Part shown: positions 40,605 through 62,210 of the stretch, in pieces | Numbering within the stretch: the first letter of the stretch is position 1 | Layout of the letters: each line of letters starts with the position of its first letter | Notes under the pieces: model-generated | Database searches by the model: none | What the model was told of the DNA's origin: nothing | Seen by the model: only the letters and a program-made list of their open reading frames with translations | From: Gallionellaceae bacterium | GTDB taxonomy: Bacteria > Pseudomonadota > Gammaproteobacteria > Burkholderiales > Thiobacillaceae | Direction of reading: 5' to 3' | Assembly (NCBI GenBank): GCA_028714875.1 | Contig: JAQTLN010000019.1 | Location: 1 to 64,000, forward strand | Length of the DNA stretch: 64,000 nucleotides | Program-made: the position numbers and the translations under genes

Positions 40605-41528
40605 TCAGAGGAAACGCATGGACAGGTCCACCGCGCGCAGGTTTTTGGTCAGGCCGCCGATGGAAATGCGGTCCACCCCGGTTTCGGCGATGGCGCGCAC
40701 CCCTTCCAGGGTGATGCCGCCGGAGGCTTCCAGTTGCGCCCGCCCGGCACTGAGCTGAACGGCGGCGCGCATCCCGGCGAGGTCGAAGTTGTCGAGCAGG
40801 ATCAGCGTCGCGCCCGCCGCCAGGGCCGTGTTCAGTTGTTCCAGGGTTTCCACTTCGATCTGCACGCTGATTTTCTCCCCTCCCCCTGCGGGGGAGGGGC
40901 CGGGGGAGAGGGAACCCGCGCCACTAATTTGGCCAAGCCTGTTCGGAGTGGCGACACCCGCCAGCGCCTGGGCGGCGCTCAGCGCCGGCTCGATTCCTCC
41001 CGCCGCCGCGATGTGGTTTTCCTTGATGAGAATTCCGTCATACAGGCCGATGCGCTGGTTCTCGCCACCGCCGCATTTCACCGCGTATTTCAGCGCCAGA
41101 CGCAGGCCGGGCAGGGTTTTCCGCGTGTCGTAAATGCGCGCGCGGGTGTCGGCGATGGCGTCCACATAGCGCCTTGTCTCGCTCGCCACGCCGGACAGGG
41201 TTTGCAGAAAATTCAGGGCCGGCCGTTCGGCGCTGAGCAGCGCCCGCGCCGGGCCGCTGATTTCGCACAGGGTTTGCCCCGCCGTGACGCGCTCGCCATC
41301 GCGCGCCAGCCAGTCGATGCGGATGCCGGCATCGATCGCCATGAAGCAGGCATCGAACCACGCCGTGCCACACAGCACCGCATTTTCGCGCGTGATGACG
41401 CGCGCCCTGGCCTGGCTGTCGGCGGGAATGAGCCGGGCGGTGAGGTCGCCGGCGCCCACGTCTTCCTCAAGCGCGGCGCGGACGTTGGCGGTGATGGCGT
41501 CTTGCGGGGATGGATTCATGCTGGGCAT
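40605..41528 (-). CDS. nadC: Nicotinate-nucleotide pyrophosphorylase NadC with a repeat-encoded insertion
   Basis: The protein of about 307 residues is quinolinate phosphoribosyltransferase, which forms nicotinate mononucleotide from quinolinate and PRPP in NAD synthesis. Family segments are DVGAGDLTA, LNFLQTLSG, YDTRKTLPGLR, KYAVKCGGGENQRIGLYDGILIKENHI, LILLDNFDL and ASGGITLEGVRAIAETGVDRISIGGLT. Normal NadC proteins run from KENHI through one helix directly to the VEVE strand. Here about 28 extra residues, including SLSPGPSPAGGGEK, interrupt that helix-strand junction; they derive from a family C repeat arm. Confidence 0.93.
   Translation of the reverse strand: MPSMNPSPQDAITANVRAALEEDVGAGDLTARLIPADSQARARVITRENAVLCGTAWFDACFMAIDAGIRIDWLARDGERVTAGQTLCEISGPARALLSAERPALNFLQTLSGVASETRRYVDAIADTRARIYDTRKTLPGLRLALKYAVKCGGGENQRIGLYDGILIKENHIAAAGGIEPALSAAQALAGVATPNRLGQISGAGSLSPGPSPAGGGEKISVQIEVETLEQLNTALAAGATLILLDNFDLAGMRAAVQLSAGRAQLEASGGITLEGVRAIAETGVDRISIGGLTKNLRAVDLSMRFL
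40873..40921. repeat. Family C repeat arm inside nadC
   Basis: CTCCCCTCCCCC, then TGCGGGGGAGGGGCCGGGGGAG and AGGGAACCCG, matches one arm of the family C elements found in the nif operon. It is in frame and adds Ser-Pro-Gly-Pro-Ser-Pro-type residues to NadC. Confidence 0.85.
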
Positions 41529-41661
41529 CGTTGCTCGGCCGCCAGGGGCGGGGCGCCTATCTATATAGCGGGTCGGGCAGCATTGTAGGGGGGCTGATTA
41601 CGGCTGTCATAACTCCCTCCATCGGCGCCGCAAACACCAGAAAAGAAATCCTGGCGGCGGG

Positions 41662-58107: not shown

Positions 58108-58129
58108 GATGGGCTCCTGGTTTGCGCCA

Positions 58130-58239
58130 TCCCCCTCCGGTGGAGGGCCGGGGAGAGGGAGCGGCGGTCGATCTGGCATATGCGCCCAATCAAGCGTGGT
58201 CCCCTCTCCCCCGGCCCCTCCCCCGAGGGGGGAGGGGAG
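58130..58239. repeat. Family C palindromic repeat between the ferredoxin gene and nifY
   Basis: The left arm CCCCCTCCGGTGGAGGGCCGG continues into GAGAGGGAG; the right arm is CCCCTCTCCCCCGGCCCCTCC plus GAGGGGGGAGGGG. It begins one base after the ferredoxin stop codon as read on the minus strand. Confidence 0.87.
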
Positions 58240-58440
58240 TTATGCCGCCAGCGGCACGATGCAGTTGTCGATGGGGCAGAGTTCCACACACTTGGGCTTG
58301 GCGTAATCGCCATCGCATTCCGTGCAGGTATCGGGGTTGATGATGTAGACGCCTTTCTTCCTCCGGATCGAGGCGGTGGGGCAGTCCGGTTCGCAATCCG
58401 CGCAGGCGGTGCAGAGTTCGGCAATGATCTGAAGTGCCAT
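58240..58440 (-). CDS. 2[4Fe-4S] ferredoxin of the nif operon
   Basis: The 66-residue protein MALQIIAELCTACADCEPDCPT carries the first cluster motif CxxCxxxxCP-like. The second is in CTECDGDYAKPKCVELCP, with an insertion between the cysteines, as in FdxN/FdI-type nif ferredoxins. It is a likely electron donor or assembly factor for nitrogenase. It lies 16 bp after nifT. Confidence 0.92.
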   Translation of the reverse strand: MALQIIAELCTACADCEPDCPTASIRRKKGVYIINPDTCTECDGDYAKPKCVELCPIDNCIVPLAA

Positions 58441-58456
58441 GATGGTTTCCTTTCGC

Positions 58457-58681
58457 TTATTCCGCCGCGTCCAGACGCTTTGCGCGGACGGAGTAGGGGA
58501 GACGTTCGGGTGCGGCCTGCGGCTCGATGAAGTAGGCGCCGCCGTTGTTCAGCTTGATCTCGCCGCCCCACTTTTCCGGGGTGTCGAACTCCATCGAGAC
58601 GATGCTGTCCTCGAGATCACGCTTGGGCAGGTAGAACACATACTCACCTTTGCCGCCGCGCCGAATCATGATGTTGGCCAT
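58457..58681 (-). CDS. nifT: NifT/FixU protein
   Basis: The 74-residue protein MANIMIRRGGKGEYVFYLPKRDLEDSIVSME continues into WGGEIKLNNGGAYFIEP, the NifT/FixU family. It is conserved downstream of nifK in diazotrophs, but its role is not established. It is separated from nifK by a family C repeat. Confidence 0.95.
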   Translation of the reverse strand: MANIMIRRGGKGEYVFYLPKRDLEDSIVSMEFDTPEKWGGEIKLNNGGAYFIEPQAAPERLPYSVRAKRLDAAE

Positions 58682-58697
58682 GGGAGGCTCCTAGGGT

Positions 58698-58801
58698 TTG
58701 CTCCCTCTCCCACCGGGAGAGGGCCGGGGTGAGGGAACGACGGTTGCGTGATGCGAGCCGCGTTCCCTCACCCCCGGCCCCTCCCCCGAGGGGGGAGGGG
58801 A
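58698..58801. repeat. Family C palindromic repeat between nifK and nifT
   Basis: GCTCCCTCTCCCACCGGGAG plus AGGGCCGGGGTGAGGGAAC on the left mirrors GTTCCCTCACCCCCGGCCCC plus TCCCCCGAGGGGGGAGGGG on the right. It begins about six bases after the nifK stop as read on the minus strand. Confidence 0.88.
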
Positions 58802-58806
58802 GACGG

Positions 58807-60375
58807 TCAGCGGACCAGGTCGTAGTTGTAGTCCGTCGTGCCCATGCCGCGGGTCTCTTCGTCCAGACGCTCCAGCACCGCGTTCACCAAGGTGGTGAGC
58901 AGGTACATGGCGCCCTCGTAACCGAGGGTGGTCATGCGATGCAGGTGGTGGCGGTCGAAGATCGGGAAGCCGATGCGGATCAGTGGCACCTCGAACGCTT
59001 TGCCCAGATGCAGGGTGTCGCGCTGGATGAACTTGCCGTAGCTGTTGCCGATCAGGAAGTCCGGCTTCTCGGTGAAGCAGAGGCTGCGCATGTGCCACAG
59101 GTCGGCGCCGGGGTAGGTCTTGCAGTTGACGCCGTAGGGCGAGTCGGCCAGCACTTTCTTCATCGCCTTGTCCCACTTCTTGCTGCCGTTGTTGCACAGC
59201 ACGTGGGTCGGCTCGGCGCCCAGTTCCATCAGGAACTTGGCCATGCCCATGACGAAGTCCGGGTCGCCGTAGAGAGCGAACTTCTTGCCGTGCAGCCAGG
59301 TGTGGCTGTCGGTCATCATGTCCACCAGGCGGCCGCGTTCCTTGGCCAGGGAGGCGGGGATGGGCTTGCCGGTGACTTCGCTGACCTTCATCAGCCACTC
59401 GTCGGTCCACTCCAGGCCCATGGGGATGTTGACCTTGGGCACTTCGTGGGTCCAGGTGGTTTCGACCAACTTCTTGGTCTTTTCCAGTTGCATCGGCTGA
59501 ATCAGGAAGGTGGTAATGGCGTTGGGCGCGTCCTTCATCTCGGCTTGGGTGGTGCCGCCGGCGTACATGCGGAAGGTGCCGTCGGCGGGGGTGTCCAGCA
59601 CTTCGGTGGGGTCGGACAGCAGGGTGTGCTCGACGCCCATCTCATCCATCATGCGGTGCAGCACGCGGAAGTTGCCCAGGTAGGTTTCGAAGCCCGGCAC
59701 CAGGTTGATCTTGCCGTTGCTGCCGACTTTCTTGTCCGCCATGTGGTTCAGCGTGAAGTAGCGGGCGATGCCTTCGAACATGTTGTCCCAGCCGGTGACA
59801 TGGCTGCCCACGAAAGAGGGGGTGTGGGCGTAGGGAACCGGGTAATCCTTTTCGATATGGCCGGCCGCCTTGGTGTTGTTGATGAAGGCGTTGAGGTCGT
59901 CGCCGATCACTTCCGCCATGCAGGTGGTGGAGACGGCGATCATCTCCGGCTTGTACAGCGCCTTGGCGTTTTCCAAGCCGTCGAACATGTTTTTCTGGCC
60001 GCCGAACACCGCCGCGTCTTCCGTCATGGAGTCGGACACGCAGGCGATCGGCTCCTTGAAATGGCGGTTGAAGTAGGTGCGGAAGTAGGCCACGCAACCT
60101 TGCGAGCCATGCACGTAGGGCAGGGTTTTCTCGAAACCCAGGGCGGCGAGCACGGCGCCCAGCGGCTGGCAGGCCTTGGCCGGGTTGATGGTCAGCGCCT
60201 CGCGCTTGAAGTTGAGGTCCTGGTATTCCGTGGTGGTGGTCCACTGGAAGGTTTCCGCCAGTTTGGTTTCGTCGATGCGCTCCTCGAACAGTTGCTGCTT
60301 CTGATGGAGCATTTCCTTGTACATGTCATCACGGAACAAGGGGTAGGACGGCTTGATGTCTTCAACGACTTGCAT
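58807..60375 (-). CDS. nifK: Nitrogenase MoFe protein beta chain
   Basis: The 522-residue subunit has the P-cluster cysteines in PAKACQPLGA, HGSQGCVAYF and VSTTCMAEVIGDD, and family regions such as DSMTEDAAVFGGQKNMFDGLENA, PHTPSF-type and SYGKFIQRD. With NifD it forms the alpha2-beta2 dinitrogenase. Two ATGs are close together: 60381 abuts the AGGAGA ribosome site, while 60375 lies five to six bases from it, so 60375 is the likelier start. Family C repeats flank the gene on both sides. Confidence 0.97.
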   Translation of the reverse strand: MQVVEDIKPSYPLFRDDMYKEMLHQKQQLFEERIDETKLAETFQWTTTTEYQDLNFKREALTINPAKACQPLGAVLAALGFEKTLPYVHGSQGCVAYFRTYFNRHFKEPIACVSDSMTEDAAVFGGQKNMFDGLENAKALYKPEMIAVSTTCMAEVIGDDLNAFINNTKAAGHIEKDYPVPYAHTPSFVGSHVTGWDNMFEGIARYFTLNHMADKKVGSNGKINLVPGFETYLGNFRVLHRMMDEMGVEHTLLSDPTEVLDTPADGTFRMYAGGTTQAEMKDAPNAITTFLIQPMQLEKTKKLVETTWTHEVPKVNIPMGLEWTDEWLMKVSEVTGKPIPASLAKERGRLVDMMTDSHTWLHGKKFALYGDPDFVMGMAKFLMELGAEPTHVLCNNGSKKWDKAMKKVLADSPYGVNCKTYPGADLWHMRSLCFTEKPDFLIGNSYGKFIQRDTLHLGKAFEVPLIRIGFPIFDRHHLHRMTTLGYEGAMYLLTTLVNAVLERLDEETRGMGTTDYNYDLVR

Positions 60376-60432
60376 GTTCATCTCCTGGCCCGAGCCGCTA
60401 ATCCGCGGACACGGGCAAAAGGTTGATCGGTT

Positions 60433-60550
60433 TTCTCCCCTCTCCCACCGGGAGAGGGGCCGGGGGTGAGGGAACCCGGCTCGATCCGGCGGCAACGCAT
60501 GATTCACCGTTGCTCCCTCTCCCCAACCCCTCCCCCGGCGGGGAGGGGCG
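60433..60550. repeat. Family C palindromic repeat between nifD and nifK
   Basis: TCTCCCCTCTCCCACCGGGA with GAGGGGCCGGGGGTGAGGGA on the left; GCTCCCTCTCCCCAACCCCT with CCCCCGGCGGGGAGGGG on the right. The centre (GGCTCGATCCGGCGGCAACG, GATTCACCGTTG) is nearly the same as in the copy at 62096. Confidence 0.9.
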
Positions 60551-60557
60551 ATACACG

Positions 60558-62045
60558 TCACGCGGCTTTCGCCAACTCGACTTCGGCTTCCGGCTTCTTC
60601 AACCAGGGCGCTTCCAGCTTTTTCCAGCACGGGTTGTTGATGGTCATGTCCATATCGCGAGCGAAGATGGCGAAACCGTCGTAGCCGTGGTACGGGCCGG
60701 AGTAGTCCCAGGAGTGCATCTGGCGGAAGGGCACACCCATCTTCTGGAAGATGTACTTTTCCTTGATGCCGGAGCCGACCAGGTCGGGCTTCACCTTCTT
60801 CACGAATTCCTCGAATTCGAAGCCGGTGACATCGTCGTAGAGCAGGGTGGCGTTGCCCATTTCCTTGATGGTGCGGTCGTAGTCGTCGCCATGGCCGAAC
60901 TCGTAGCCGGTGCCGACCACTTCCATGCCCAGGTCTTCATAAGAGCCGATGACGTGGCGCGGGCGCAGACCACCGACGTAGAGCATCACGGTCTTGCCGG
61001 CCAGACGCGGCTGGTACTTGGCGACGATGGCGTCGACCATGGGCTGGTACTTGGCGATCACCGCTTCCGCGCCGGCCTTGATCTTGTCGTCGAAGTGAGC
61101 GGCGATGGCGCGCAGCGACTCGGCGATCTTGGTGGGGCCGAAGAAGTTGTATTCGATCCAGGGGATGTTGTACTTCTCTTCCATGTGCCGGGCGATGTAG
61201 TTCATCGAGCGGTAGCAGTGGATGAGGTTGAGCTTGACCTTGGGGGTCAGTTCGATTTCCGCCAGGGTGCCGTCACCGGACCACTGGGCCACGACGCGCA
61301 GACCCATTTCTTCCAGCAGGATGCGGGAAGACCAGGCGTCGCCGCCGATGTTGTAGTCGCCGATGATGGAGACGTCGTAGGGGGTGGGGACGAATTCCTG
61401 CTTCACGTCCTTGCCGTCGCGGCCGAACACCCAGTCACGGATCGCGTCGTTGGCGATGTGGTGGCCGAGGGACTGCGACACGCCGCGGAAGCCTTCGCAA
61501 CGCACCGGAACGACCGGCTTGTTGAGTTCCGCCGCGCCTTTCTTGGAAACCGCTTCGATGTCGTCGCCGATCAGGCCGATCGGGCACTCTGATTGCACCG
61601 AGATGCCCTTGTGCAGGGGGAACAGACCCTCGATCTCGTTGATGATCTTGGCCAGCTTCTTGTCGCCGCCAAAGACGATGTCCTTCTCCTGGAAGTCGGA
61701 GGTGAAGTTCATCGTGCCGAAGGTGTTCACGCCAGTGACGCCGACGTAGTAGTTGCGGCGTCCGGCGCGGGAATACTGGCCGCAGCCGACGGGGCCGTGG
61801 GAGATGTGGATCATGTCCTTGATCGGACCCCAGACCACCCCCTTGGAACCGGCGTAGGCGCAGCCGCGGATGGTCATCACGCCGGGCAGCGACTTGCGGT
61901 TGGAAGTGATGCACTTCTTGGATTGTTCGATGCTCTGGTCGTTGACCGCCAGATGTTTGGCCCGGTCTTTCTGGGCTTTTTCCGGATAAACCTCGAGCAC
62001 CTCGGCGATGAGGGCCTCGGTTTGCTCTTTCGTCAAAGCAGACAT
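60558..62045 (-). CDS. nifD: Nitrogenase MoFe protein alpha chain
   Basis: The 495-residue subunit has the P-cluster cysteines in [29 protein letters not shown] and [11 protein letters not shown]. FeMo-cofactor ligands are the cysteine in [12 protein letters not shown] and the histidine in [15 protein letters not shown]. Other hallmarks are [16 protein letters not shown] and [11 protein letters not shown]. It starts with ATG at 62045 after GGAG. It is the second gene of the operon driven by the sigma-54 promoter before nifH. Confidence 0.98.
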
Positions 62046-62095
62046 TTCATTCTCCTTTCACGCCGCCACCAATCTGTGGAAAGCGTGGTTGGTTT

Positions 62096-62210
62096 GCTCC
62101 CCTCTCCCACCGGGAGAGGGGCGGGGGGAGAGGGAACCCGGCTTGATCCGGCGACAACGTCTGATTCACCGTTGCTCCCTCTCCCCAGCCCTCCCCCGGA
62201 GGGGAGGGGA
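62096..62210. repeat. Family C palindromic repeat between nifH and nifD
   Basis: GCTCCCCTCTCCCACCGGGA and GAGGGGCGGGGGGAGAGGGA form the left part; GCTCCCTCTCCCCAGCCCTC and CCCCGGAGGGGAGGGG the right. It begins about nine bases after the nifH stop as read on the minus strand. Confidence 0.9.

What the first reader, a model, noticed from the sequence alone, without database searches (positions are those of the whole stretch)
58130..62210. A family C palindrome sits in every long intergenic gap of the nifHDKT-fdx-nifY operon
Elements at 62096-62210 (nifH-nifD), 60433-60550 (nifD-nifK), 58698-58801 (nifK-nifT) and 58130-58239 (ferredoxin-nifY) each begin one to nine bases after the upstream stop codon. 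The only gap without one is the 16-bp nifT-ferredoxin junction. Post-stop GC-rich palindromes can protect upstream mRNA 3' ends or cause partial termination. They could set the high NifH:NifDK ratio and the lower expression of accessory genes. The regular placement suggests selection or a targeting preference for post-stop sites.
Basis: partly seen in the sequence, partly recalled or inferred. Interest (0 to 1): 0.78.

Follow-up and report, generated by a model that had tools for sequence, protein, structure and literature searches.

The report
Interchangeable palindromes after nif stop codons
The four long gaps between these nitrogen-fixation genes each hold a copy of a known, widely scattered palindromic repeat, and related species fill the same gaps with different palindromes, which suggests that a hairpin there is useful whatever its sequence.

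Summary
Observation confirmed: four elements start 0-8 nt after the nifH, nifD, nifK and ferredoxin stops. Each is an inverted pair of the known TM/PIT/BoxC triplex motif; its RNA folds at -76 to -93 kcal/mol, without a U tract. Interpretation partly supported. Against: palindromes follow many stops in this genome (121 of 386 co-directional gaps), their position within gaps fits random placement, and 18 of 46 TM loci lie inside reading frames (IleRS, MutS, NadC). For: in nine species of the genus the same nif slots fold strongly in 30 of 35 tested gaps, with different repeat families, against 34/185 and 89/246 own-genome controls; in 80 wider nif loci 150 of 212 gaps, against 9/65. The nifD-nifK slot is as structured as nifH-nifD, so a NifH-specific dosage role is not favoured. 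Most likely they are interchangeable post-stop hairpins that protect cistron 3' ends (inferred). Downstream, before the ribosome-binding sites of nifD and nifK, lies a conserved, covarying RNA hairpin with no Rfam 15 match; 16 of 18 class-level loci outside this genome are nifD/nifK.

The parts
62096..62210 (-). TM pair in the nifH-nifD gap, 8 nt after the nifH stop
   Evidence: -83.7 kcal/mol, z -5.96
60433..60550 (-). TM pair in the nifD-nifK gap; 92% identical to the nifH-nifD copy
   Evidence: -92.6 kcal/mol, z -7.77
58698..58801 (-). TM pair in the nifK-nifT gap
   Evidence: -79.5 kcal/mol, z -6.20
58127..58239 (-). TM pair in the ferredoxin-nifY gap, 0-3 nt after the ferredoxin stop
   Evidence: -76.3 kcal/mol, z -4.35
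62052..62092 (-). Module B before nifD: conserved covarying RNA hairpin just upstream of the ribosome-binding site
   Evidence: 40.8 bits
60381..60421 (-). Module B before nifK: the same RNA motif
   Evidence: 40.0 bits
58441..58456 (-). 16-nt nifT-ferredoxin junction, the only gap of the set without a palindrome in this genome
   Evidence: three of nine congeneric operons have 65-111 nt here, two of the three with z<=-3
40878..40912 (+). Single TM motif read through in-frame inside nadC (ORF 40605-41597, - strand)

Best explanation
Each of the four gaps is a slot between a stop codon and the next gene's start signals. The slot is occupied by a palindromic repeat from the genome's resident pool; here the pool member is a TM/PIT/BoxC-type inverted pair. 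The palindrome is transcribed and folds into a very stable hairpin within a few nt of the stop. The most likely function is to protect the upstream cistron's 3' end against 3'-5' exonucleases after the polycistronic nif mRNA is cut, as REP hairpins do. Selection keeps some hairpin in each slot but not a particular sequence, so different repeat families replace one another over time. In the nifH-nifD and nifD-nifK gaps the free space is further bounded downstream by a conserved RNA hairpin (module B) and the ribosome-binding site, which would account for the elements sitting next to the stop. Shown: elements, folds, motif family, different palindromes in the same slot across species, excess over control gaps, covariation of module B. 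Inferred: transcription through, 3'-end protection, and that selection rather than tolerance keeps the slots filled.
For: Same slots filled by unrelated palindromes in nine congeneric operons. Tested slots with z<=-3 after removing module B and the start region: 8/9, 8/9, 7/8, 7/9, against 34/185 and 89/246 controls; with a mononucleotide shuffle on whole gaps, 35 of 36 slots against 17 of 72 other co-directional gaps of 50-225 nt in the relatives. In 80 nif loci z<=-3 in 42/71, 47/68 and 61/73 tested gaps, against 9/65 and 6/57 control gaps of the same loci. Main stems begin within 15 nt of the stop in 31 of 36 genus slots and 178 of 216 slots of the 80 loci, against 148/227 and 224/322 own-genome controls. 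Two slot palindromes tested in whole genomes are abundant at home: the G004 nifD-nifK slot has 24, 78 and 95 matches in G004, G002 and G012 and 0 here; the G026 one has 50, 29 and 4 in G026, G002 and here (both strands and the slot itself counted). No U tract at any of 36 genus slots. cbbL-cbbS shows the same with several families (9 of 16 tested sequences). In Bradyrhizobium an RNA that is probably a processing product overlaps the nifH 3' UTR (PMC5082802, passage), in another gene order.
Against: This genus is rich in palindromes after stops, so part of the filling may be passive: 121 of 386 co-directional gaps hold one, and one randomly picked control gap was filled in 3 of 3 orthologs. In the genus 5 of 35 tested slots miss z<=-3 (three of them in G027). 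In the 80 loci 12 of 216 slot stems do have a U-rich tail. E. coli PIT elements showed no promoter or terminator activity and no effect in vivo in earlier work as reported in PMC4666352. Controls rest on my own gene callers and few gaps, and species are not independent. 13 of 36 slots have no match elsewhere in the sampled DNA, so not every slot palindrome is shown to be a dispersed repeat. No RNA data.
Confidence: 0.5

Rival explanations
1. Passive safe harbour: palindromic repeats spread everywhere and persist only where they do no harm, that is between a stop and the next ribosome-binding site, or in-frame in loops of proteins. nif slots are filled because they tolerate it, not because it helps.
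For: In-frame copies in conserved proteins (ten of the 18 in-ORF loci identified by Pfam); few palindromes in divergent gaps (6 of 94) against co-directional (121 of 386) and convergent (42 of 81); position in gaps as random; an IleRS site with a TM in this genome and two congeners, another palindrome in a third and no insert in three more.
Against: Does not explain why nif slots are structured in 30 of 35 against 18-36% of controls, nor 150 of 212 against 9 of 65 in the wider class, mostly with palindromes other than TM (TM arms in the three scanned nif gaps of only 8 of 80 loci).
Confidence: 0.3
2. Brake on translation: a hairpin within about 15 nt of a stop stalls the terminating ribosome and lowers output of the upstream gene by trans-translation and mRNA decay, as reported for REPs.
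For: Elements start 0-8 nt after the stop; nif stems begin within 15 nt somewhat more often than controls (31/36 against 148/227 and 224/322); the REP effect is stated in PMC5082802 (passage).
Against: It would tax NifH, NifD and NifK, which must be made in large amounts (general knowledge); most control stems are as close to a stop.
Confidence: 0.08
3. Partial terminators or attenuators that grade expression along the operon.
For: Very stable hairpins. In Anabaena the nifH transcript exceeds nifD and nifK (RPKM 1940, 108, 242; PMC3141674, passage), though its gaps were not examined here.
Against: No U tract at any of 36 genus slots; all seven terminator-like sites of the scan lie on the other strand; E. 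coli PIT elements had no terminator activity; the equimolar nifD-nifK pair has as strong a slot as nifH-nifD.
Confidence: 0.07
4. DNA-level role of the triplex motif (replication or transcription roadblock, genome instability).
For: Seven of eight nif arms reach at least 7 of 9 third-strand triads by my count; Holder et al. link TMs to local instability.
Against: Other species fill the same slots with palindromes of other sequence types; in vivo footprinting did not support stable triplex in E. coli.
Confidence: 0.05

Closest known systems
TM / PIT / BoxC intrastrand-triplex repeats (Holder et al. 2015, PMC4666352)
   Same: Same three-block motif, e.g. CCCTCTCCC-loop-GGGAGAGGG-loop-GGGGTGAGGG, and the same inverted-pair arrangement that five E. 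coli sites have
   Different: In E. coli always intergenic; here 18 of 46 loci lie in reading frames and four pairs fill one operon. A distant BLAST of one whole element in E. coli genomes found nothing, with the low-complexity filter on.
REP/BIME elements after stop codons
   Same: Works like them: stable post-stop hairpins in operon gaps, some copies inside ORFs (PMC3733652 and PMC5082802, passages)
   Different: No GTAG or CGTC tag at the foot of the nif palindromes; much longer; no RAYT link tested
Rickettsia palindromic elements (RPE)
   Same: Palindromes inserted in-frame in conserved genes (PMC10969869, section 13)
   Different: RPE sequences were not compared; host is not a Rickettsia; here many copies sit after stops
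MITEs
   Same: About 100-bp inverted-repeat, multicopy, without a gene of their own
   Different: No clear target-site duplication at the one empty site compared; no parent transposase looked for

Membership tests
TM/PIT/BoxC triplex motif | Pyrimidine block, complementary purine block and third purine block with short loops | tested here: met
   8 of 8 nif arms found with up to 2 mismatches per block; WC 7-9 of 9, triads 6-9 of 9
   At 9-nt blocks, 5 of 8 arms have at most one mismatch in pairs and in triads; 3 of 8 have more; other block sizes not scanned
TM/PIT/BoxC triplex motif | Always intergenic (stated for E. coli) | tested here: not met
   18 of 46 loci in-frame inside ORFs. I treat this as a description of E. 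coli rather than a definition
TM/PIT/BoxC triplex motif | Triplex forms in solution | not testable with these tools
   needs CD/NMR
REP/BIME | GTAG or CGTC tag at one end of the palindrome | tested here: not met
   read for the four nif elements
REP/BIME | Associated RAYT transposase | not tested
   -
RPE | In-frame insertion in unrelated conserved genes | tested here: met
RPE | Rickettsial RPE sequence families | not tested
MITE | Target-site duplication | tested here: inconclusive
   IleRS empty site: no clear duplication, flanks diverged
Intrinsic terminator | Hairpin followed by U tract | tested here: not met
   0 of 36 genus slots

The most novel reading that the evidence does not exclude
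nif operons have fixed post-stop sockets that must hold a strong palindrome, and each genome fills them from its own pool of selfish repeats, so mobile repeats act as interchangeable regulatory parts. Directly downstream, a new nitrogenase-specific RNA hairpin (module B) marks the starts of nifD and nifK and may tie together translation of the two equimolar subunits.
Probability: 0.4. Interest if true: 0.8.

Novelty: new variant of a known kind. Interest (0 to 1): 0.62.

Why it matters
It would turn repeats usually treated as genomic clutter into swappable parts of a central metabolic operon, and it offers a natural experiment: one slot, nine species, several palindromes. It also points to a conserved RNA element before nifD and nifK without a match in Rfam 15, relevant to anyone who refactors nif clusters and removes intergenic DNA.

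Tried and rejected
Rfam gave only two tRNAs in the window at gathering score. Below it, 69 matches in the nif stretch, mostly eukaryotic microRNAs on the palindromes, all under their cut-offs.

Idea that TM arms are specially free of stop codons and so suited to genes: weak at best. 34 of 66 arms are stop-free in all six frames, against 26% of random stretches of the same length, but full pairs have 3-6 open frames, against a mean of 3.3 for random 108-mers.

Post-stop targeting was tested and rejected. Clustering of TM loci is strong with the nif operon (2 of 5000 random placements) and weak without it (166 of 5000).

My first gene calls overran the elements. A second version that forbade this made false divergent genes. 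The dicodon flank test settled most contexts; in one of the 18 in-ORF loci (C9:20736) one flank codes only weakly, and two further loci (C2:37822, C2:93232) lie in what reads as the 3' tail of the upstream ORF. Notebook entries speak of 19 full pairs with 6 in genes; the right split is 18 pairs (13 in co-directional gaps, 5 in ORFs) and one triple motif in an ORF.

First control in the 80 loci used longest ORFs (7/87 and 3/74); a stricter gene caller gave 9/65 and 6/57. I quote the second. Its length-matched part is small: 4 of 22 controls of 70-180 nt. Of 65 candidate control gaps, shuffled, ten were printed; I ran the first, second and fourth and skipped the third, a chemoreceptor with many paralogs. 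The fourth had only short weak matches and no orthologs, the first only two besides this genome. So the orthologous control is thin: 3 of 3 filled for the first; for the second 1 of 7 testable among 22 sequences, where in most the next gene follows almost at once and at least three of the seven testable stretches (L271, L276, L277) read as misframed or mis-started coding sequence.

Literature on nif gap hairpins and on an RNA motif before nifD/nifK: the searches listed 4, 1, 0, 3 and 4 papers, none of which, by title, abstract or the passages I saw of three (PMC6606865, PMC3610870, PMC3141674), describes either. Only open-licence PMC papers are searchable, so this is weak evidence of absence. 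In-frame palindromes in genes.
Full report
WHAT IS THERE. The operon runs on the - strand. The four long gaps (nifH-nifD 173 nt, nifD-nifK 182, nifK-nifT 125, ferredoxin-nifY 132) each hold one element close behind the upstream stop; the 16-nt nifT-ferredoxin gap holds none. Each element is a pair of facing motifs of the form CCCTCTCCC-loop-GGGAGAGGG-loop-GGGGAGAGGG (up to 2 mismatches per block) around a core of some 30-45 nt. As RNA they fold at -83.7, -92.6, -79.5 and -76.3 kcal/mol, with z-scores of -5.96, -7.77, -6.20 and -4.35. The nifH-nifD and nifD-nifK copies are 92% identical; the ferredoxin-nifY copy matches at 80%, best in the other orientation.

WHAT FAMILY. The motif is that of Holder et al. 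2015 (PMC4666352; I read the abstract, sections 15 and 18, the first part of section 20, and passages). They call it TM, formerly BoxC or PIT; [quoted passage not shown] coli sites as an inverted pair. In a 1.26-Mb sample of this 4.08-Mb genome I found 66 motifs at 46 loci, against 0-1 in five shuffles: 18 full pairs, one triple and 27 single motifs. At 40 of the 46 loci the best arm has at most 3 mismatches; six are weaker and may not belong. A BLAST of one element finds 75 matches in the whole genome, counting both strands and itself. A distant BLAST of the element against E. coli genomes found nothing, with the low-complexity filter on, so kinship rests on motif architecture.

WHERE THE COPIES SIT. 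Of the 18 full pairs, 13 lie in co-directional gaps, 3-32 nt after the stop (11 of 13 within 14 nt), and 5 inside reading frames. Over all 46 loci, 18 lie within one open frame that codes on both sides, one of them weakly on one side; 16 of these 18 have an arm with at most 3 mismatches. I gave ten of the 18 to Pfam: MutS, IleRS, indole-3-glycerol phosphate synthase, alanine racemase, a siroheme-decarboxylase-like protein, two VWA proteins of the RuBisCO cluster, glycine cleavage P protein, NadC (in this window) and an ABC ATPase. At the IleRS site this genome and two congeners (G009, G012) carry a TM, a third (G008) has another palindrome, three (G011, G007, G005) have no insert and four (G004, G010, G002, G003) have short other inserts; the distance between conserved anchors is a multiple of three in all 11 genomes examined. 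In-frame palindromes are known from Rickettsia (PMC10969869, section 13) and, for REPs, from several species (PMC3733652, passages). This is a new family for a known behaviour.

IS THE POST-STOP PLACE SPECIAL? Palindromes of many families follow stop codons in this genome: 121 of 386 co-directional gaps of 40-400 nt, 42 of 81 convergent and 6 of 94 divergent gaps, against 3, 0 and 0 in shuffled gaps. That is 0.31 per gene end in co-directional gaps, 0.26 per gene end in convergent gaps and 0.06 per divergent gap. Among the 121 the fraction within 15 nt of the stop (0.405) equals that of random placement that spares the last 12 nt (0.400 +- 0.033).

ARE THE NIF SLOTS SPECIAL? Of 23 genomes of the genus searched, nine including this one have a full nifD and a tenth a fragment. 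I read all five gaps in each of the nine. The nifH-nifD, nifD-nifK, nifK-nifT and ferredoxin-nifY slots hold palindromes near the stop, but of several unrelated families (sorted by eye): TM pairs here (4 of 4), in G012 (3), G008, G026 and a variant in G010; CGTCATTCC..GGAATGACG in G026 and G002; GTGCGAATT..AATTCGCAC in G004, G002 and G012; GTYGGGTTACGGCGC types in G007, G012 and G008; and others. After removing module B and the start region, z<=-3 in 8/9, 8/9, 7/8 and 7/9 slots (30 of 35; one slot too short to test), against 34 of 185 or 89 of 246 own-genome control gaps, depending on the trimming. The five that miss are three slots of G027 (z -2.6 to -1.7), G008 ferredoxin-nifY (-0.9) and, narrowly, G007 ferredoxin-nifY (printed as -3.0). 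Two slot palindromes searched in whole genomes reflect the resident pool: that of G004 nifD-nifK has 24, 78 and 95 matches in G004, G002 and G012 but none here, and that of G026 has 50 matches at home, 29 in G002 and 4 here (both strands and the slot counted). In the sampled DNA, 23 of 36 slots have at least one match elsewhere and 13 have none. Beyond the genus, in the 80 NifD loci kept, tested gaps with z<=-3 are 42/71, 47/68 and 61/73, against 9/65 and 6/57 control gaps of the same loci (4 of 22 among controls of 70-180 nt). TM arms occur in the nif gaps of 8 of these 80 loci. Main stems start within 15 nt of the stop in 31 of 36 genus slots and 178 of 216 slots of the 80 loci, against 148 of 227 and 224 of 322 own-genome controls.

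Limits on this. The slots are not unique to nif: the cbbL-cbbS gap behaves alike (9 of 16 tested sequences, several families, two genomes giving two copies each), and one random gap was filled in 3 of 3 orthologs, while another was filled in 1 of 7 testable among 22, with at least three of the seven not true gaps. The controls rest on my own gene callers. And related species are not independent, though different sequences in the same slot argue for repeated replacement.

A SECOND ELEMENT, MODULE B. Between the palindrome and the ribosome-binding site of both nifD and nifK lies a small hairpin with loop NNAUNN and a stem that varies by compensatory changes. On 77 non-redundant sequences its six core pairs are 94% formed, with covariation score 0.714, against 0.230 in shuffles and at most 0.166 when the partner is slid. 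I chose the sequences with a rule that required the inner four pairs and the AU; the two outer pairs were not required and also covary. The rule found it in 147 of 159 nifH-nifD and nifD-nifK gaps, and in 9 of 74 nifK-nifT gaps, where no position was demanded. A model finds 19 hits at E<=0.003 in 23 genomes of the genus. By coordinates, 18 lie upstream of nifD or nifK in the nine species and one upstream of the partial nifD; the next hit is at 0.023. In 58 of the loci held, 112 of 114 hits at E<=1 are by coordinates upstream of nifD or nifK (the other two, in L061 and L080, are weak), but most of the model's own sequences are among them. An independent test is the class: of 369 genomes, 18 including this one have hits at E<=0.003. 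Of 18 loci fetched outside this genome, 16 are upstream of nifD or nifK and two (L242, L243) are not near either; three listed second hits were not fetched. It gives no match in Rfam 15 at gathering score, and below it none centred on it. Its function is unknown. In Stutzerimonas the sRNA NfiR pairs inside the nifD coding region, and NfiS targets nifK mRNA (PMC6606865, abstract and passages), so nifD and nifK are known targets of RNA-level control, but not at this element. A role in nifD/nifK translation or binding of a factor is my inference.

MECHANISM. REP-type hairpins are reported to stabilise upstream mRNA, to act in termination, or, within 15 nt of a stop, to stall ribosomes (PMC5082802, passage). 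No slot in the genus has a U tract (0 of 36; 12 of 216 in the 80 loci), and PIT elements had no terminator activity in E. coli. All four slots are alike in strength, and the equimolar nifD-nifK pair is not spared. I therefore favour 3'-end protection of each cistron over graded expression, at 0.5, with passive persistence at 0.3. Nothing at the RNA level was measured.

Noticed in passing
window 62052-62092 and 60381-60421 (-): Conserved covarying RNA hairpin just upstream of the nifD and nifK ribosome-binding sites across the class, without a match in Rfam 15.
   Followed up: yes
own genome C10:21465-31497 (L164): RuBisCO cluster: full TM pairs after cbbL, cbbS and a cbbQ, plus TMs in-frame inside two VWA genes (cbbO-like); a second operon crowded with TMs.
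   Followed up: partly
L179 (G012, IleRS): A TM inside IleRS has a second, unrelated palindrome nested in its core, still in frame.
   Followed up: no
own genome sample, e.g. C1:246326-246440, and L208-L212 nif slots: Several slot palindromes are built of about 7-nt direct repeats (TTTCGGA, GTGAAAG, GGGGATG types) and may form a common structural class.
   Followed up: no
own genome C1:241968-246440: Gaps around two chemoreceptor genes carry a run of different palindromes, including a TM pair at C1:244274-244373.
   Followed up: no
L242, L243: Module B model hits (E 0.0015 and 0.0023) not near nifD or nifK; chance or another gene context.
   Followed up: no
L225:2650-2690: Weak module B hit (20.7 bits) upstream of nifK on a Pantoea plasmid, hinting that the motif reaches Enterobacterales; none found in the Rhizobium locus L226.
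   Followed up: no
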